Shown here piece after piece: positions 1,911-63,042 of a stretch of DNA of 64,000 nucleotides. Made by a program: the position numbers and the translations under genes. The notes below the pieces were generated by a model. The model made no database searches, had not been told where the DNA came from, and was given only the letters and a program-made list of their open reading frames with translations. Position 1 is the first letter of the stretch. Every line of letters begins with the position of its first letter. Source of the stretch: Cynocephalus volans (Eukaryota > Chordata > Mammalia > Dermoptera > Cynocephalidae); the NCBI RefSeq assembly GCF_027409185.1, contig NC_084462.1, positions 22,233,577-22,297,576 of the forward strand, given 5' to 3'.

Positions 1911-2519
1911 CCATTCCTAAAAGGATTCAGGAGCTCCTGGATCCTTCTCTCTGCCATTGGAGGCTGGTGTGGCTATAAGGTTTTCTTTTGTACAAGTAAC
2001 CCCCATCCGGGGACAAGTAGCCTTTAGTGGGAACCTTTCTTTACAGCCAGAAAAGACCAATCACCCACTTCTTATGACCATATAGACACTCCAAAGCCAC
2101 AGAGCCAACCAGGAACCAAAGGCATCATTGAATACAAAGATTGCAGTTCCAGGCACATGCACCAAAATTATCTTTCCCCAGTGACAGAGGAACTCTGGGG
2201 GGGTCTCCTGGGTTCTCCATTGTGTCTTGGGTGACTATGTGATGTACCCCTCATGCATAGCCTGTAGGGAAGTGAAAGTCCCACCCTTGCAACCAAAGTC
2301 TTTATGCAGCCTGCTGATGGGTGGAGTTCCTGGCAGTGATATATTTGTAGAGTCTCTACTTTACCCAGTGATCTGCCTTGGCAGCCACTGAGATCTCAGA
2401 TCTCACAGAGATTTGAGACTTTGTCACCTGCAGTACCAACAAAGTCCTGCTCTCTTTATGTGGCTAAAAATATACAACGTCCAGACTCGGCTCAGTCGTG
2501 CTCTGTCTACATGGCATTT
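1911..2519. other. Intergenic, nothing recognised
   Basis: No coding exon, RNA gene or confident repeat is visible between the LTR and the U6-derived insertion. Confidence 0.45.
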
Positions 2520-2574
2520 AAAACACCTCTGCCTGTGCTCGCTTCGGCAGCACATATACTAAAACACCTCTGCC
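2520..2574 (+). pseudogene. U6 snRNA 5'-fragment retropseudogene with target-site duplication
   Basis: Positions 2535-2560 match the first ~26 nt of U6 spliceosomal RNA (GTGCTCGCTTCGGCAG followed by CACATATACT). This piece is flanked by a perfect 14-bp direct repeat, AAAACACCTCTGCC, at 2520-2533 and 2561-2574. The site reads TT|AAAA on the + strand, the usual L1 endonuclease target. U6 itself continues with AAAA at this point, so the truncation falls where its internal A-run meets the A-run of the target. It has no poly(A) tail and no promoter and is not a functional U6 gene. It is best explained as a very short L1-mediated insertion primed inside U6 RNA. The U6 identity is from memory but is highly specific. 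Confidence 0.88.
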
Positions 2575-16779: not shown

Positions 16780-18240
16780 AAAATGATTTTTGGAGATCTT
16801 AATTTCTTTGTGTAGATCCAGATTTCTGTTTTGTATCATATTCTTCTGCCTAAAGGATTTTCTTTAACATTTCTTGTATCACAGGTCTGCAGATAATAAA
16901 TTCTCTCTGCTTTTGTTTGTCTGGAAAAGTCTTTATTTCATGTTTATTTTTGAGAGATAGGATTCAGAGGTGACAATACTTTTTCTTTCAATACTTTAAA
17001 GATGTCACTCCGTTATCTTCTAGCTTGCACAGTTTTTCATAAGAAGTCTTCTACTACTGTTTTACAAGGGTACTCCAAAAAGTTTATGGAAAAATAGAGT
17101 GGGAAGATAATACAAATCTTTCCACGAACTTTTGGAAGTACCCTCATATTTGGGCCTCTGTGTGCAATGTGTCAGATTTCCTCTAGCTGCCTGCAAGATA
17201 TTCTCTTTACCTCTGATTTCTAGTAGTTTGAATAGGACGTGTCTGAGTTTTTTGTTCGTTAGTATTTGGGGGATAAGCTATTTATTTTTGTGTGGTCCTC
17301 TGATTTTTTTGAATGTGTAATTTGTTGTTACTTTATTTTTGGAAAATTAGTGGCCATTATCTCTTTGACTATTTATTCTGCCTCATTGTTCTTTCTTTGC
17401 CTTCTGGGATTCTGCACATATGGTGGGCCATTGGTTATTGTCACATACGTGTTGGCGCTCTACCCTTTAAAGCTTTTTTAATTCTTCTTTCTTCGTGTTT
17501 CAGTTTGGGTAATTTCTGTTGACCTCCCTTAAAAATTCACTTATTCTTTTCTCAGCAGTGTCAAGGATTGTGATAAGCCCTTTGGAGGCATTCTTCATTA
17601 CTGTTACTACTGTTTTAGTAAAAAAAATTCTGACATCTACAGGAGACTCTTTCTTATAGTTTCCATCTTTCTGCTAAAATTTCTCATCTGTTCATGAATG
17701 TTGTTTATTTTTTCTACCGGAGCCTGTAACATATCAGTCATAGTTATTTTAAAATCTCTGTCTCATTGTTTTACCATCTGAGCCATTACTGAGTTTAGCT
17801 CTTTTGATTGATTTATCTCTTGAGAATGGGGTGTTTTCACTTGCTTTTTTCATATATTCTGTAAGTTTTGATTGAATGCCAGACATGGTGTGTAGAGCAG
17901 TAGAGACTGAAATGAATATTTATGCCTGGGATTGGCAAGTCTTTTCTTTTGCTTGGCTGCTTGTGTGGGTGTTGAGTCAATCTAGTCAGGAACGAGACTG
18001 GGTTTGGGTTTTGTTGTCTATATTTACCATCAGCGCACTACCGGCTTCAAACTTTTCCAGAGGAGCCTTGTGCTTAGGGTGGAGGCTGGGGTGCTGGAGG
18101 GTTTTTCTCAGTGTTCCTGTGACACACTGAGCTCTTGGCGTTCCTTGGGTGCTTGCACCTTGGAGAGGATTTCTTCTGTTCTTGCTTCTACCACTGTGGT
18201 AGACTCCTATCACTGTCACATGTGCTTGGTGGCCTGGTGG
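16780..18240 (-). mobile_element. HAL1/L1 ORF1-region fragment, reversed
   Basis: The phrases attctctctgcttttgtttgtctggaaaagtctttatttc, ctttcaatactttaaagatgtcactcc and ggaaaattagtggccattatctctttgac resemble the reverse complement of HAL1 or an old L1 ORF1 region. It is interrupted at 17065-17146 by a mariner-type MITE. The right edge is uncertain. Confidence 0.5.
17065..17146. mobile_element. 82-bp mariner-type MITE
   Basis: The two ends are inverted repeats of about 27 bp (left cAAGGGTACTCCAAAAAGTT, right the complement ending GAAGTACCCTCA). TA lies on both sides (17063-17064 and 17147-17148), as expected for a Tc1/mariner target-site duplication. The centre is only ~28 bp and carries no coding capacity. 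It interrupts the old L1/HAL1 sequence. The ends resemble those of mariner elements of the Hsmar2 type as I remember them. Confidence 0.85.
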
Positions 18241-25535: not shown

Positions 25536-26058
25536 GCACTCTTTAGCAACAAAATCCACTTTATTCTGTAAAGTTGTAAATAAAAAGTGTTATGGCATTA
25601 ACGTTCTTCTCAAGTTAGACTGAAATGCATGTATTTCCTATATTCTTGTTTATTTGTTTTAATAAGAGAAACTTTAATTTTGAATTGTAATATTAATAAT
25701 GAGTATTACAGGATCTCTCTGAGTTCTGTCATAATTGACCAGGGAGGATTCGATATTTGTTGAATTCAAGTAAGAGATAACTCATGTTAGCATGATTAAT
25801 TTCAAAACTATCCAGCAGTTGAAATTTTGCATGTAAACATAAACACAGCATGAGTGATATATGGAAGTGATAAAAATATGTAGAACACATGATAAAAACA
25901 AATGTTTCCTTATGGATCCTAAACTGACCTAATTTCTTTCTAAAGTTTCAAAAATTATTGTATTTTTAATGTGTGTGGGTTTATTGGAAAACAAGAATGT
26001 ACCTGAAGATGATAATCATAGTTACATCTAACAGAAGTGTTACGGGTAGTTATTACAA
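25536..26058 (-). other. 3'-transduced flanking sequence of the L1
   Basis: Between the L1's A-rich 3' end (26059-26086) and the poly(A) next to the target-site duplication lie 523 bp that do not look like L1. On the minus strand this stretch ends with AATAAA (25565 to 25560) about 24 nt before the poly(A), a proper spacing for a polyadenylation signal. It should derive from the genomic DNA just downstream of the parent L1. It has no long open frame and I cannot identify it. An alternative is an older insertion into the tail, but there is no second target-site duplication to support that. Confidence 0.82.
25560..25565 (-). promoter_or_regulatory. Polyadenylation signal used by the transduced transcript
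   Basis: AATAAA on the minus strand (TTTATT on +), ~24 nt before the poly(A) at 25535. Confidence 0.75.
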
Positions 26059-26086
26059 TTTATTTATTTTTTTATTTTTTTATTTT
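26059..26086 (-). repeat. A-rich 3' end of the L1 body
   Basis: On the minus strand it follows ATATCGACAAAAT as an A-run broken by T every 3-7 bases, consistent with an L1 3' end and its first, bypassed poly(A) site. Confidence 0.75.
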
Positions 26087-26130
26087 GTCGATATACATTG
26101 TGGCTGATTATTGCTCCCCATCACCAAAAC

Positions 26131-26161
26131 TTCCCTCCCTTCTCCCTCCCACCTCCCCCCC
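26131..26161 (-). other. G-rich polypurine tract in the L1 3' UTR
   Basis: The minus strand holds a G run followed by repeated GGG blocks separated by A or AGA/AAG (plus strand ttccctcccttctccctccc onwards). At least four G-triplets are close together, so a G-quadruplex is possible. G-rich polypurine tracts are a known feature of mammalian L1 3' UTRs. Confidence 0.75.
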
Positions 26162-26240
26162 AACAATGTCCTTTCTGTTTGCTTGTCGTATCAACTTCAA
26201 ATAATTGTGGTTGTTATATCTTCTTCCCCCCCCCAAGTTT

Positions 26241-26244
<4 letters not shown>

Positions 26245-26274
<30 letters not shown>
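26245..26274 (+). repeat. (TG)15 microsatellite
   Basis: Thirty bases of perfect TG within the L1 3' UTR, close to the ORF2 stop at 26292. Confidence 0.97.
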
Positions 26275-26277
<3 letters not shown>

Positions 26278-26291
26278 TTATATATTAATTT

Positions 26292-29200
26292 TTAGCTCCC
26301 ACCAATCAGTGAGAACATGTGGTATTTCTCTTTCTGTGCCTGACTTGTTTCACTTAATATAATTCTCTCAAGGTCCATCCATGTTGTTACAAATGGCAGT
26401 ATTTCATTCGTTTTTATAGCTGAGTAGTATTCCATTGTGTAGATGTACCACATTTTCCGTATCCACTCATCTGATGATGGGCATTTGGGCTGGTTCCAAC
26501 TCTTGGCTATTGTAAAGAGTGCTGCGATAAACATTGGGAAAGAGGTATACATTCGACTTGATGATTTCCATTCCTCTGGGTATATTCCCAACAGTGGGAT
26601 AGCTGGGTCGTATGGTAGATCTATCTGCAATTGTTTGAGGAACCTCCATACCATTTTCCATAGAGGCTGCACCATTTTGCAGTCCCACCAACAATGTATG
26701 AGAGTTCCTTTTTCTCCGCAGCCTCACCAGCATTTATCGTTCATAGTCTTTTGGATTTTAGCCATCCTAACTGGGGTTAGATGGTATCTCAATGTGGTTT
26801 TGATTTGCATTTCCCGGATGCTGAGTGATGTTGAGCATTTTTTCATATGTCTGTTGGCCATTTGGATATCTTCCTTAGAGAAATGCCTACTTAGCTCTTT
26901 TGCCCATTTTTTAATTGGGTTGCTTGTTTTCTTCTTGTAAAGTTGTTTGAGTTCCTTATATATTCTGGATATTAATCCTTTGTCAGATATATATTTTGCA
27001 AATATTTTCTCCCATTCTGTTGGTTGTCTTTTAACTCTTTTAATTGTTTCTTTTGCTGTGCAGAAGCTTTTTAGTTTGATATAATCCCACTTGTTTATTT
27101 TTCCTTTGGTTGCCCGTGCTTTTGGGGTCGTATTCATGAAGTCTGTGCCCAGTCCTATTTCCTGAAGTGTTTCTCCTATGTTTTCTTTAAGAAGTTTTAT
27201 TGTTTCAGGGTGTATATTTAAATCCTTAATCCATTTTGAGTTGATTTTAGTATACGGTGAGAGGTATGGATCTAGTTTCATTCTCCTGCATATGGATATC
27301 CAGTTATCCCAGCACCATTTGCTGAAGAGGCAGTCCCTTCCCCAGTGAATAGGCTTGGTGCCTTTGTCAAAGATCAACTGGCAGTAAGTGTGTGGGTTGA
27401 TTTCTGGATTCTCTATTCTATTCCATTGGTCAGTGTGTCTGTTTTTATGCCAGTACCATACTGTTTTGGTTATTATAGCTTTGTAGTATAGCTTAAAGTC
27501 AGGTAATGTTATGCCTCCAGCTTTATTTTTTTTGCTCAGCATTGCTTTGGCTATGCATGGTCTTTTATTGTTCCATATAAATGTCTGGATAGATTTTTCC
27601 ATTTCTGAGAAAAATGTCTTTGGAATTTTGATGGGGATTGCATTGAATTTGTATATCACTTTGGGTAGTATGGACATTTTCACTATGTTGATTCTTCCAA
27701 TCCAAGAGCATGGGATATCTTTCCATCTTCTTGTATACTCTCTAATTTCTCTCAGCAGTGGTTTGTAGTTCTCATTATAGAGATTTTTCACCTCCTTGGT
27801 TAACTCAATTCCTAAGTATTTTATTTTTTTGGTGGCTATTGTAAATGGGCAGGCTTTCTTGATTTCTCTTTCTGCATGTTCACTATTGGAGAAAAGAAAT
27901 GCTACTGATTTTTGTCTGTTGATTTTGTATCCTGCTACTGTGCTGAAATCATTTATCAATTCCAACAGTTTTTTTGTAGAGGTTTTAGGCTGTTCGATAT
28001 ATAGGATCATGTCATCTGCAAACAGGGACAGTTTGACTTCATCTTTTCCAATCTGGATGCCCTTTATTTCCTTCTCTTCTCTGATTGCTCTGGCTAGTAC
28101 TTCCAACACTATGTAGAATAGGAGTGGTGAGAGTGGGCATCCTTGTCTAGTTCCTGTTCTTAAAGGAAAAGCTTTCAGCTTTTCCCCATTCAGGATGATA
28201 TTGGCAGTGGGTTTGGCATATATGGCTTTAATTATGTTGAGATACTTTCCCTCTATACCTAACTTATAGAGGGTCTTTGTCATGAATGAGTGCTGAACTT
28301 TATCAAATGCTTTTTCAGCATCTATAGATATGATCATATGGTCCTTGTGTTTGAGTTTATTAATATGGTGTATCACATTTATTGATTTGCGTATGTTGAA
28401 CCAACCTTGCATCCCTGGGATGAATCCCACTTGATCGTGATGAATAATTTTACGTATGTGTTGCTGTATTCTGTTTGCTAGTATTTTAGTGAGGATTTTT
28501 GCATCTATATTCATCAAGGATATCGGCCTGTAGTTTTCTTTTTTGGTTATATCTTTACCTGGTTTTGGTATCAGGATGATGTTTGCTTCATAGAATGAGT
28601 TTGGGAGATTTGCGTCCGTTTCAATCTTTTGGAATAGTTTGTAAAGAATCGGTGTCAATTCCTCTTTGAATGTTTGGTAAAATTCTGCTGTGAATCCATC
28701 TGATCCTGGGCTTTTCTTTGTTGGGAGCCTTCTGATAACAGCTTCAATCTCCTTTATTGTTATTGGTCTGTTCAAATTTTCTACATCTTCATGGTTCAGT
28801 TTTGGGAGCTTGTGTGTGTCCAGAAATTTATCCATTTCCTCCAGATTTTCAAATTTGTTGGCGTATAGTTGTTTATAGTAGTCTCGAATGATTCCTTGTA
28901 TTTCAGATGAATCAGTTGTAATATCACCTTTTTCATTTCTAATTTTTGTTATTTGAGTCTTCTCTCTTCTTTTTTTTGTTAGCCATGCTAATGGTTTGTC
29001 AATTTTATTTATCTTTTCAAAAAACCAACTTTTTGATTCGTTGATCTTTTGAATTGTTTTTTGGTTTTCAATTTCATTCAGTTCTGCTCTGATCTTAATG
29101 ATTTCTTTCCGTCTGCTAACTTTAGGTTTGGATTGTTCTTGTTTTTCTAGTTCTTTAAGGTGAAGTGTTAGGTTGTTCACTTGCCATCTTTCTATTCTTC

Positions 29201-30116
29201 TGAAGTGAGCGTTTAATGCGATAAATTTTCCCCTCAATACTGCTTTTGCAGTATCCCACAGGTTTTGGTATGATGTATCATTGTTTTCATTAGTTTCAAT
29301 AAATTTTTTGATTTCCTGCTTGATTTCTTCTTGGACCCATATGTCATTAAGTAGAATGCTGTTTAATGTCCATGTGTTTGTATAGTTTCCAGAGTTTTGT
29401 TTGTTATTAATTTCTAGTTTTAATCCATTGTGGTCTGAGAAGATACATGGGATAATTCCAATTTTTTTGAATTTATTGAGACTTGATTTGTGACCTAATA
29501 TGTGATCTATCCTGGAGAATGATCCATGTGCTGCTGAGAAGAATGAATATTCTGAGGTTGTTGGATGGAATGTTCTGTAGATATCTGCCAATTCCAATTG
29601 GTCTAGAGTCTTGTTTAGATCTTGTGTTTCTCTACTGATTCTTTGCCTAGATGATCTGTCTAATATTGACAGTGGGGTGTTCAGGTCCCCTGCTATTATG
29701 TATTAGTGTCTATTTCCTTCTTTAGATCTAATAGAGTTTGTTTTATAAATCTGGCTGCTCCAACATTGGGTGCGTACATATTTATGATTGTTATGTCTTC
29801 TTGATGGATCAGTCCTTTTATCATTAAGTAGTGTCCCTCATTGTCTCTTTTTATGGTTTTTAGTTTAAAGTCTATTTTGTCAGATATAAGAATAGCTACT
29901 CCAGCTCGTTTTTCTTTTCTGTTTGCATGGTAAATCTTTTTCCATCCTTTCACTCTTAGTCTGTGTGAATCTTTATGGGTGAGGTGAGTCTCTTGTAGGC
30001 AGCATATAGTTGGGTCCTGCTTTTTGATCCAGTCAGCCAGTCTGTGTCTTTTAATTGGGGAATTTAAGCCTTTTACATTGAGTTGTTATTGAAAGGTGTT
30101 GATTTATTCCTAGCAT
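26292..30116 (-). pseudogene. L1 ORF2 (endonuclease–reverse transcriptase), inactivated
   Basis: The coding region runs from an ATG at 30116-30114 to a stop at 26292, 3825 bp, close to the ~1275 codons usual for L1 ORF2. The order is the APE-like endonuclease (motif SRIDHILG near 29516-29493), then the reverse transcriptase, with its catalytic FADD at 28022-28011, then the C-terminal Cys-rich region and the MEYYSAIK block. Three lesions break it. Near 30080 the frame shifts just after codon 12 (2 nt missing or 1 extra). At 29698-29697 one base is missing, which creates an immediate TAA. At 26726-26724 a TGA interrupts the frame inside the conserved Trp-Gly-Cys block; CGA is likely ancestral, so this looks like CpG decay. 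The longest intact piece is 957 codons (29597-26724). It cannot encode a complete protein. Confidence 0.95.
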
Positions 30117-30303
30117 TTTATTGGTTGTTTGGTTGTCTTAGGTGTCTTTTGTTCCTTGCTTTCTGATTTACTGTTTGGTTTCTGTGTTTGTTGGTTCCTT
30201 AGGTTGTAGATAGCGTTTTTGTTAGCTTGTTTTCTCTTCATGAATGCCATTTTTATTATACTAGCAGGTTTAGATTTTTCTTGGGTTTTTATGGCAGTGG
30301 TAG

Positions 30304-31302
30304 TTATTTTTCAGGAACCAAACCCAGGACTCCCTTGAGGATTTCTTGTAAGGGTGGTCGTGTGGTAGTGAACTCCCGCAGTTTTTATTTGTCTGAGAAA
30401 TATACTATTTGCCCCTCATTTCGGAAGGATAGCCTTGCAGGGTAGAGTATTCTTGGCTGGCAATCTTTGTCTTTTAGTATTTTGAAAATATCATCCCATT
30501 CCTTTCTAGCTTTTAGGGTTTGTGATGAAAAGTCTGATGTTAGCCTGATTGGGGCACCCTTATAGGTGATTTGACGCTTCTCTCTTGCAGCTTTTAAGAT
30601 TCTCTCTTTGTCTCTGAGTTTTGCCAATTTGACTATGACATGTCTTGGAGAAGGTCTTTTTGGGTTGAATACATTTGGAGATCGTTGAGCTTCCTGGATC
30701 TGAAGATCTGTGATTTTTCCTATACCTGGGAAGTTTTCTGCCACTATTTTGTTGAATATGTTTTCAATGGAATCTCCATTTTCCTCCCCTTCTGAAATAC
30801 CCATGACTTGGATATTTGATCGTTTAAGGTTGTCTGATATCTCTCTCAGATTTTCTTCAATGTCCTTGATACTTTTTTCTTTCTTTTTGTCTGCTTGTGT
30901 TATTTCAAACAGCCCATCTTCAAGTTCAGAGGTTCTCTCTTCAACTTCGACAAGCCTGCTGGTTAAACTCTCCGTTGTGTTTTTTATTTCGTTGAATAAC
31001 TTCTTCAGTTCAGCAAGTTCTGCTACATTTTTTTTCAGGACATTGATTTCCTTGTACATTTCCTCTTTCAGATCCTGTATACTTTTCCTCATTTCATCAT
31101 GATGTCTAGCTGAGTTTTCTTGTATCTCATTCAGTTTCCTTAGAATTATCACTCGAAATTCCTTATCAGTTATTTCAAGGGCTTCTTGTTCTATAGGATC
31201 TAGAGTTTGAGATTTATTAACTTTTGGTGGTGTACTTTCTTGATTTTTTGTATTTCTGGTATCTTTTTTTGGGGGTTTATTCATTGTGGCAGGGGGTTTC
31301 AC
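30304..31302 (-). pseudogene. L1 ORF1 (RNA-binding trimer protein), truncated by a stop
   Basis: ATG at 31302. The frame is open for 305 codons to a TAA at 30387-30385, and the same frame then continues open to another TAA at 30306-30304, giving an expected full length of 332 residues. The stop at 30387 is therefore probably a CAA-to-TAA change that removes ~27 C-terminal residues. The N-terminal ~50 residues are basic and disordered, ~50-158 are rich in Leu, Glu and Lys heptads (coiled coil for trimerisation), ~159-253 contain the RRM-like part (SNIQVMGI), and the rest is the C-terminal domain (RPSPRHVIVKLAKLRDKERI). In intact L1s this protein packages L1 RNA with ORF2. Confidence 0.93.
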
Positions 31303-49129: not shown

Positions 49130-49227
49130 TTTTTTTTTTTGTGGTGGTTGGCCAGTATGGGGATCCAAATCCTTGACCTTGGTGTTAACAACACCATGCT
49201 CTAACCAACTGAGCTAACCAGACAGCC
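49130..49227 (-). mobile_element. Monomeric tRNA-Ile-derived SINE (CYN-like)
   Basis: Minus strand: GGGCTGTCTGGTTAGCTCAG, TTGGTTAGAGCATGGTGTTG, AAGGATTTGGATCCCC and TACTGGCCAACCAC followed by an A-tail of about 11. The target-site duplication CTCTGATCCATTTT is perfect (49116-49129 and 49228-49241), which points to a younger insertion than its L1 host. Confidence 0.92.
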
Positions 49228-51922: not shown

Positions 51923-52118
51923 GACATAAGCAATGCTAGAGGTAAATAAATGCTCTCACTCCTTTCTTTTATCTTTCCAAGATTCCATTTGCAGTGTTTG
52001 TGTGTGTCTATGTGGCTTGTGACATAAGCAATGCTAGAGGTAAATAAATGCTCTCACTCCTTTCTTTTGTCTTTCCAAGATTCCATTTGCAGTGTCTGTG
52101 TGTGTCTATGTGGCTTGG
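51923..52118 (+). repeat. 98-bp tandem duplication
   Basis: 51923-52020 and 52021-52118 are two adjacent direct copies of a 98-bp unit starting GACATAAGCAATGCTAGAGG. I count two differences (tttAtcttt/tttGtcttt and gtgTttgtg/gtgTctgtg), about 2%. The unit is single-copy-looking sequence and not a known repeat. Confidence 0.95.
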
Positions 52119-54474: not shown

Positions 54475-54661
54475 CTTTTTTTTTATATATATATAAAGAT
54501 GACCGGTAAGGGGATCTTAACCCTTGACTTGGTGTTGTCAGCACCACGCTCACCCAGTGAGCCAACCGGCCATCCCTATATAGGGATATAAACACAGGGA
54601 TATAAACCTGTGGCCTTGTTGTTATCAGCACCACACTCTCCCAAGTGAGCCATGGGCCAGC
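54475..54661 (-). mobile_element. Dimeric tRNA-Ile-derived SINE (CYN-like)
   Basis: Minus strand: gctGGCCCATGGCTCACTTGG and a first B-box-like region, then GGATGGCCGGTTGGCTCACTGG, GGTGCTGACAACACCAAG, GGGTTAAGATCCCC and TTACCGGTCATC, and a TA-then-A-rich tail. It has an internal 17-bp duplication (gggatataaacac repeated near 54583 and 54598). An imperfect target-site duplication CCCCCTACCATT / CCCCCACCATT flanks it. Confidence 0.85.
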
Positions 54662-54764
54662 TCCCCCACCATTCTAAAACAGTGACTTTCTTCCTACAAA
54701 ATCACAGAACAGATTATATGTTCAGCAAAACCTTTGTTTCTTTCCCTCAGCACCATTATGGTTG

Positions 54765-60936: not shown

Positions 60937-61362
60937 ATGCTGGCGCTGCTGGCCGCCGGCGTGGCGCTCGCCGTGGCCGCCGGGGCTCAGGACAGCCCGG
61001 CGCCCGGCAGCCGCTTCGTGTGCACGGCGCTGCCCCCGGAGGCGGTGAGCGCCGGCTGCCCGCTGCCCGCGATGCCCATGCAGGGCGGCGCGCTGAGCCC
61101 CGAGGAGGAACTGCGGGCCGCGGTGCTGCAGCTGCGCGAGACCGTCGTGCAGCAGAAGGAGACGCTGGGCGCGCAGCGCGAGGCCATCCGCGAGCTCACG
61201 GGCAAGCTGGCGCGCTGCGAGGGGCTGGCGGGCAGCAAGGAGCGGGGCGCCGCGGCCACGGGCAAGGACACCATGGGCGACCTGCCACGGGACCCCGGCC
61301 ACGTCGTAGAGCAGCTCAGCCGCTCGCTGCAGACCCTCAAGGACCGCCTGGAGAGCCTCGAG
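60937..61362 (+). CDS. NPTX2: Neuronal pentraxin 2, coding exon 1
   Basis: Encodes residues 1-142 of neuronal pentraxin 2, a secreted synaptic organiser that binds AMPA receptors and clusters them at excitatory synapses, notably on interneurons. The start ATG at 60937 has G at -3 and opens a hydrophobic signal peptide (MLALLAAGVALAVAAGA, cleavage near residue 14-17). Cys29, Cys41 and Cys94 are in the N-terminal region, where family members form intersubunit disulfides. Residues ~55-92 and ~120-142 have heptads typical of the coiled coil that multimerises these proteins. The exon ends in GAG (Glu142) with the donor GTAGCG at 61363, phase 0. The sequence is nearly identical to human NPTX2 as I remember it, and differs from NPTX1 and NPTXR. 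Confidence 0.97.
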
Positions 61363-63042
61363 GTAGCGGCGCGCGGGGGAGGGAGGACGCCCTCGGGTCG
61401 TGGGGCAGGAACGGGAGGAGAAAGGGACGGTGCATGGTCCAGGCCAGGCGCGCTCTCCCGCGGAGTGAGCTGGGTGTGGTGGTAAAAGGTTGGGGGTGGT
61501 GGGTCTCGTTCTTGCTCGGGAACTTAATTGGGTCGCAATCCTACCCCCAACCCCCGCGCCCGTTTGCTGAAGGAAAGGGTTAAATCCCCTGAGCACCGGG
61601 ACTGCCCACTGGACCCACCGTGCACTTCCTGAGGTCCCGCCTAGGGACCCCGGATGGCCAAGCCGGGCGCGAAATACTTGGTGACGGGGCAGCTTCCTTC
61701 CTCTTCTGCAAATCTCCGCGAGCCGGGCTGGTCCAGCAGGCCCTTGCGGGATGCTGCGAGGCTCCCGCGGGAGGTCAGCTGCCTTGGGCATCTGGTGTTT
61801 CCTTTTATAAATCCGATCGGGTTTGACCAGAGGGGGTGGAGGCCTGGGGGTGGGGGACTCTGCGGGAGGCGGGCGCGGGGTGGCGCGTCACCCTCGACCC
61901 CAAAAGGCGCATTAGAGGAAATCCCTTGTTAATTTCAAAGACGCTTATGTCTTTGAATTGGACCATTTTAAAGTGCCCTTCCTGATTGCTTTGGGGGAGG
62001 TGACTTTATAACGTTCTCTCTTGGAAGATGTGTGTGGTTTGGAACTTTGAGAGGGAAATCTTCAATTAATTTTCATCTTTACTTTCCACCCTTATTTAAG
62101 AAGTGTGGACATTTCTGTTAATAGCGTTTATTAATATACTTATTAGCAAAATTAGGTTTAAATTACGGGTGGTAGTTATTGCAAAATTATTTGAAGGTTT
62201 CTTTTGGCACGATAGCTAAATACAGTATTTCCAGCATCTGTATATCCCCTGATTCGTTATGATTACTAACAGCTAACATTTCTTGAGTACTAAATATGGG
62301 TCAGGCATATTATTTAACTTTAATCCTTGCAATAATGAATGGCACGAGGCTAGTTTATTATGTCCATTTTACAATTTGGAACACTTAGAGTAGAGAGGGG
62401 TAAATAGCTTGCCAAGGACTCAGGACTAGGCAACGGCAGGCTGTCTCCAGAGCCTGAATAATGGTAGAGGAGTAAAAGAAATAGGAAGTGTGGATTTAGA
62501 AACAGCATTAAAAACAAAATTTCTGGAATTCAGGATAGTAACGTTTTATATCTGTCATTTTCCAGTAACATCTCTGCAAGCATAGTTATTTACCTTTGTG
62601 ACATTCCGGACCTTGGGCGCTGTTTTCCTTTCTAGATGAATGCGCATCAGCTTTGAGTACCATCGATTACCTCTTTAAAAAAAAAAAAATCTTAGCTGTG
62701 TTTTGGTGTTTATCCAACATAGAATTAAAGGTGTTGGTTAAAATGTTGACTTTTTAGTAAGAGGAGATAACAGCTTTTTTGAGAGGGGAAAATGAGATTT
62801 ACAAGTTGCATATATTGCAGCAAAGTTACTCTTGTCTGACTTTGAAATCCTTTCCATCCCTTCCCCTCCCCCCCAAAAAAGCATCAATGAAATGCTCCCC
62901 TTCCTGCCTTTGGCACGGTTTAATGCTTGCGTTTGGGAAGCTTCTCCCTGTGTGGTCAGGCATGGGAAGCTACATTTCACAATTTCTTTTCAACTGGCCT
63001 GAATACTTCTCCCTCTTGTGTCCCCCCCGCCCCTACTGAAAG
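61363..63042 (+). other. NPTX2 intron 1
   Basis: A 1.68-kb intron with donor GTAGCG and acceptor AAAG after a pyrimidine-rich tract (cttctccctcttgtgtcccc). The first 120 bp belong to the CpG island. A reversed MIR lies at about 62270-62460 (cttgagtactaaatatgggtcaggc, attttacaatttggaacacttagag). A T/A-run is at 62676-62688. Confidence 0.9.
62270..62460 (-). mobile_element. MIR SINE, reversed, in NPTX2 intron 1
   Basis: catttcttgagtactaaatatgggtcaggc, cctttgcaa-like ttaatccttgcaataatg, gtccattttacaatttggaacac and aatagcttgccaaggactcaggac follow the reverse complement of MIR. Confidence 0.75.

What the first reader, a model, noticed from the sequence alone, without database searches (positions are those of the whole stretch)
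2520..2574. A 26-nt U6 snRNA fragment inserted by L1 machinery with a perfect 14-bp target-site duplication
This is one of the shortest retro-insertions that can be recognised. The U6 piece begins at nucleotide 1 and stops exactly before U6's internal AAAA, and the duplicated target begins with AAAA after TT. This suggests that a nicked T-rich target primed reverse transcription from the internal A-run of U6 and not from a poly(A) tail. It shows microhomology-primed, tail-less retrotransposition directly.
Basis: partly seen in the sequence, partly recalled or inferred. Interest (0 to 1): 0.75.

Follow-up and report, generated by a model that had tools for sequence, protein, structure and literature searches.

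The report
Tiny U6 RNA fragment, LINE-1 pasted
A 26-letter piece of the U6 splicing RNA appears to have been copied into this mammalian genome by LINE-1 machinery; it is a clean example of a known kind of insertion, and many similar ones lie elsewhere in the same genome.

Summary
Window 2535-2560 equals U6 nt 1-26, flanked by perfect 14-nt direct repeats (2520-2533, 2561-2574), with one extra T at 2534. TAAAA is shared by target and U6 (nt 26-30), so the 3' end is only fixed to nt 25-30. In the held genome U6 nt 1-26 occurs exactly 365 times. I read the first 100 listed: 88 are 3'-truncated near nt 26-39 with 11-21-nt target repeats (mispaired control 6 of 1,779). Junction overlap averages 2.95 nt (82 loci) against 1.41 with permuted endpoints (0 of 5,000 reach it), so endpoints follow the target, as target-primed internal priming predicts. 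Eight of 89 other loci tested have a related uninterrupted copy in the window's repeats. The class is published as tailless retropseudogenes (PMC5322556) and 3'-truncated snRNA pseudogenes (PMC4476161), with hundreds of 3'-truncated U6 copies in dog, cat and ferret. Verdict: real, mechanism well supported, known kind, not among the shortest. No orthologous empty site could be examined.

The parts
2520..2533 (+). 5' copy of the target-site duplication (AAAACACCTCTGCC); 2519-2533 if the shared T is counted
2534..2534 (+). extra T between duplication and U6 nt 1: untemplated base, or a C/T difference in a 15-nt duplication
   Evidence: 17 of 88 sampled loci (this one included) have one extra base, 8 of them T
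2535..2560 (+). U6 snRNA nt 1-26, 26 of 26 identical
   Evidence: U6 letters were recalled and agree 106 of 106 with genome copies L014, L026, L083
2561..2574 (+). 3' copy of the target-site duplication; its AAAA (2561-2564) coincides with U6 nt 27-30, the presumed priming site
2517..2524 (-). L1-endonuclease-like site: top strand TTT/AAAAC, i.e. bottom strand GTTTT/AAA, inferred nick between 2519 and 2520
   Evidence: same TT/AAAA trend at the other sampled sites

Best explanation
A tailless (3'-truncated) U6 retropseudogene. Inferred steps: the L1 ORF2 endonuclease nicked the bottom strand at TTTT/AAA. The exposed 3' TTTT end paired with A27-A30 of a U6 RNA held by the L1 machinery. Reverse transcriptase copied U6 from nt 26 to its 5' end. 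A staggered second nick and repair then duplicated the 14-nt target, with perhaps one extra base at the 5' junction. Shown here: the anatomy, and the statistical dependence of the U6 endpoint on the target sequence across sampled loci. Inferred: the enzyme, from the cleavage motif, the duplications and the published family.
For: Exact U6 1-26 and perfect repeats. 365 exact U6 1-26 genome-wide, against 56 exact places for U6 nt 31-56 in the list (my count of its rows); with up to 2 mismatches 789 against 280. In the 100 exact copies read, 90 were called truncated and 88 of 90 have duplications, 86 of them 13-19 nt; 6 of 1,779 mispaired controls reach the same score. A score of 5 or 6 against TT/AAAA occurs at 35 of 88 sites and about 4% of background positions. 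Mean overlap at the 3' junction is 2.95 nt against 1.41 permuted, 0 of 5,000 (82 of 88 loci). The effect holds in 51 loci without AAAA near the junction and in 28 loci ending beyond the A-run. Related copies without the U6 piece were found for 8 of 89 other loci. The window carries L1 ORF1 and RT-bearing ORF2 sequence.
Against: No orthologous or paralogous empty site was available for the window locus itself. The predicted fold of free U6 pairs A27-A30 with the 3' UUUU, so the priming site is not single-stranded in that prediction. Two of the 90 loci called truncated lack a duplication (L082, L093; L093 looks like a mutated longer copy). Six of 88 loci have 1-3 bases between U6 and the duplication, 8 have zero overlap and 11 only one base, so pairing is not visible everywhere. 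No biochemical evidence.
Confidence: 0.92

Rival explanations
1. Self-primed cDNA: the 3' UUUU end of U6 folds back on A27-A30, primes a cDNA of nt 26-1, and the cDNA is then inserted at a nick.
For: The predicted fold pairs the 3' end with the A-run; self-priming was proposed for U3 pseudogenes (Bernstein, Mount and Weiner 1983, seen only as a reference-list entry in PMC4476161).
Against: It predicts one fixed endpoint. Rightmost endpoints run from nt 26 to 39 and follow the target sequence (0 of 5,000 permutations).
Confidence: 0.03
2. A pre-cut or degraded U6 fragment (nt 1 to about 30) was the template, and its own 3' end annealed to the nick.
For: Endpoints cluster: rightmost end at nt 26-36 in 86 of 88.
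Against: Noll et al. found no convincing oligo(A)-tailed truncated 5S or U2 copies and no matching truncated RNAs, and concluded for internal priming (PMC5322556); U6 was not tested there in that way. Endpoints depend on target sequence, although selection among a mixed pool of ends could imitate that.
Confidence: 0.04
3. Capture of U6 cDNA or RNA at a double-strand break without the L1 endonuclease.
For: One sampled locus (L082) has only a 5-nt repeat.
Against: 88 of 90 carry duplications of 11-21 nt, and the sites show an L1-like motif.
Confidence: 0.01

Closest known systems
3'-truncated snRNA pseudogenes (Doucet et al. 2015, PMC4476161)
   Same: 3' truncation at a purine-rich segment preceded by T, duplication, TTTT/A-like site, junction pairing, and the T absorbed into the longest duplication (section 8). 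Table 2 lists 12 3'-truncated U6 copies in human, 236 in cat, 316 in dog, 440 in ferret, 151 in rat.
   Different: At the lower size limit of that survey (at least 26 nt). The U6 endpoints are in their figure, which is not held, so I could not compare the endpoint distribution.
Tailless retropseudogenes (Noll et al. 2015, PMC5322556; Schmitz et al. 2004, cited there, not read)
   Same: 5' complete, 3' truncated, no tail, duplication, internal priming proposed at A-rich segments, target consensus TT/WAAAAWW.
   Different: Insert of 26-27 nt is below their 30-nt screening minimum, unless the shared AAAA is counted.
U6/L1 chimeras and U6 poly(A) pseudogenes
   Same: Same source RNA; present in the same genome (6 and 1 of the 10 longer copies read).
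   Different: They contain full-length or near full-length U6 joined to L1 sequence or an A-run; the window copy has neither.

Membership tests
Tailless retropseudogene (criteria of PMC5322556) | 5' end (almost) complete and 3' truncated by at least 10 nt | tested here: met
   U6 nt 1-26 of 106
Tailless retropseudogene (criteria of PMC5322556) | duplication of 8-35 nt, at least 70% identical | tested here: met
   14 of 14 nt
Tailless retropseudogene (criteria of PMC5322556) | no oligo(A) tail | tested here: met
   the AAAA after U6 is also at the start of the left target copy
Tailless retropseudogene (criteria of PMC5322556) | minimal length 30 nt (a screening limit) | tested here: inconclusive
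   26 nt, or 30 nt if the shared AAAA is counted
Tailless retropseudogene (criteria of PMC5322556) | truncation point complementary to the target | tested here: met
   TAAAA shared here; dependence across 82 sampled loci
3'-truncated U6 group (criteria of PMC4476161) | at least 26 nt, at least 97.5% identity, duplication of at least 10 nt, no repeat or poly(A) attached | tested here: met
L1-mediated insertion | TTTT/A-type cleavage site | tested here: met
   TTT/AAAAC on the top strand
L1-mediated insertion | empty orthologous site | not testable with these tools
   no related mammal is held (one search says the genome has no relatives here); no paralogous site returned
SINE | A-rich 3' tail | tested here: not met

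The most novel reading that the evidence does not exclude
In this lineage the dominant recent fate of U6 in retrotransposition is a very short insert carrying only the 5' stem-loop (about 24-39 nt). By extrapolation from 88 of the 100 copies read, roughly 320 of the 365 exact U6 1-26 copies are of this kind. Each insert records the pairing between one nicked target and one RNA, which would make the family a natural assay for the minimum pairing that L1 reverse transcription needs.
Probability: 0.35. Interest if true: 0.45.

Novelty: new member of a known kind. Interest (0 to 1): 0.27.

Why it matters
The single locus is ordinary. As a family, these inserts are short enough to be read whole. 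Their endpoints depend on the target in a way that favours target priming over self-priming or a single pre-cut template, a question discussed since early work on snRNA pseudogenes.

Tried and rejected
Rfam at gathering thresholds reported only two tRNA-like matches in the window and not the U6 piece, presumably because it is too short. A search for a paralogous empty site of the window locus found none. A comparison with other small RNAs (5S, U2) was asked for and never answered. Literature searches meant to identify the species from its SINEs did not settle it (listings only). A combined search for tailless, U6 snRNA, LINE-1, microhomology and internal priming found no paper holding 4 of the 5 terms. 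Rejected: chance match, self-priming, break repair without duplication. Limits: the 100 loci are the first listed of 365, all exact matches on contigs C1, C2 and part of C3, so older copies are not represented. Six of 88 loci with bases between U6 and the duplication were left out of the permutation test. The loci in that test were chosen for a detectable duplication, and junctions were parsed to the longest repeat. My gap-free rule counted L093, probably a mutated longer copy, as truncated.

Full report
Observation. The stretch 2519-2575 reads T AAAACACCTCTGCC T [U6 nt 1-26] AAAACACCTCTGCC C. The U6 piece matches 26 of 26, and 0 of 100 shuffles of the window have a match even at 3 mismatches. 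The 14-nt repeat is perfect and occurs only at these two places in the window. Its longest form is 15 nt because U6 T26 equals the target base in front of AAAA. The U6 endpoint can therefore lie anywhere from nt 25 to nt 30. The extra T at 2534 is either an untemplated base or a C/T difference at the end of a 15-nt duplication.

Uniqueness. A search of the whole assembly (2.81 Gb, 130 contigs) with 2100-2760 returned the site itself and 39 other matches, all of which cover the U6 piece; 40 of 268 candidates were scored, and the tool skips very common words. Within that limit the target appears single copy, and no paralogous empty site was found for it.

Other insertions. U6 nt 1-26 occurs 365 times exactly (182 and 183 per strand) and 789 times with up to 2 mismatches; the reversed control pattern gives 0. 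U6 nt 31-56 occurs 280 times with up to 2 mismatches, of which 56 listed places are exact by my count. I read all 100 places listed, out of 365 exact ones: 8 loci came and 92 (alignment). The window's own copy is one of them (L091). Ninety were called truncated by a gap-free rule and ten longer. Of the 90, 88 carry duplications with a score of 9 or more; loci paired wrongly on purpose reach that score in 6 of 1,779 cases. Duplication lengths are 11-21 nt, 82 of 88 at least 14 nt; 76 of 88 are perfect and at least 13 nt. Of the other two, L082 has only a 5-nt repeat and L093 looks like a mutated longer copy. No extra base lies between duplication and U6 nt 1 in 62 of 88, one in 17, two or three in 9. 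Nine loci besides the window's have the same junction type. At the 5' junction the 62 loci without extra bases show overlaps of 0, 1, 2 and 3 nt in 39, 17, 5 and 1 cases, against 46.5, 11.6, 2.9 and 0.7 expected from equal base use, a small excess that I did not test further.

Mechanism. Target sites show TT followed by A-rich sequence. Junction overlap alone could follow from an endonuclease that prefers TT/AAAA together with an A-run in U6. I therefore kept the targets and the U6 endpoints and permuted which endpoint goes with which target, in the 82 of 88 loci without intervening bases (6 dropped). Observed mean overlap is 2.95 nt, permuted 1.41, and 0 of 5,000 permutations reach the observed value. 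The excess remains in 51 loci without AAAA near the junction (2.41 against 1.08), in 28 loci ending beyond nt 30 (3.14 against 1.24) and in 54 ending at nt 26-30 (2.85 against 2.10), each 0 of 5,000. Pairing between target and RNA therefore probably helps to set the endpoint. This argues against self-priming from the U6 3' end, which the predicted fold of free U6 would allow, and against a single pre-cut template. It does not exclude selection from a mixed pool of fragment ends. Against a universal need for pairing: 8 of 88 loci have zero overlap, 11 have one base and 6 have intervening bases.

Uninterrupted sites. I joined the flanks of 90 loci without the insert and compared them with the window. 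The window locus matched only itself. Of the other 89, eight (L016, L019, L056, L062, L082, L089, L098, L100) align across the junction to window sequence that lacks the U6 piece; seven of the eight fall in the L1 region 26292-31107, L019 at 17071-17152. Identity is 66-79%. The alignment near the junction is ungapped at L019, L062 and L089; L082 has a one-base gap (and only a 5-nt repeat); L016 has an 11-nt gap beyond the junction; L056, L098 and L100 are weaker.

Longer copies. Of the ten, six continue into sequence like that of the L1 region of the window (L014, L026, L054, L072, L073, L083). One has an A-run and a 17-nt duplication (L021), and one is truncated near nt 70 with a 15-nt duplication (L027). 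L002 and L060 were not classified.

Known kinds. Doucet et al. (PMC4476161; outline, sections 5, 8, 9, 12 and passages read) describe 3'-truncated snRNA pseudogenes with junction pairing, TTTT/A-like sites and the absorbed T, and list hundreds of 3'-truncated U6 copies in dog, cat and ferret. Noll et al. (PMC5322556; outline, sections 3 and 14, first part of section 4) describe tailless retropseudogenes and argue for internal priming. The Cell Genomics 2026 paper (PMC13174262, passages only) treats U6/L1 chimeras. Schmitz 2004 and Denison and Weiner 1982 were seen only as citations. The finding is a new member of this kind. In what I read I saw no text giving U6 endpoints near nt 26-30, but the figure that shows them is not held, so I make no claim of priority.

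Host. The tRNA-like SINEs without a further body remind me of those of flying lemurs; this is recall and was not confirmed.

Noticed in passing
window 26058-31302 (-): LINE-1 copy with ORF1 (305 aa, L1 RNA-binding domains) and a 957-aa ORF2 piece with a reverse transcriptase domain; sequence at its 3' side matches the L1-like parts of U6 chimeras elsewhere in the genome.
   Followed up: partly
window 60937-61485 (+): GC-rich ORF whose start resembles neuronal pentraxin 2 (NPTX2) exon 1; label recalled, PDB and Pfam searches did not name it. Useful as a synteny anchor.
   Followed up: partly
window 49149-49223 (-) and 54500-54670 (-): tRNA-derived SINE-like copies that end in an A-rich stretch soon after the tRNA-like part, one of them apparently dimeric.
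   Followed up: partly
window 51923-52117: Two tandem copies of a 98-bp unit, 97% matching.
   Followed up: no
L014, L026, L054, L072, L073, L083: U6 joined to L1-like sequence; in L083 the first 41 nt and the following stretch match separate segments of the window's L1 region in opposite orientation.
   Followed up: partly
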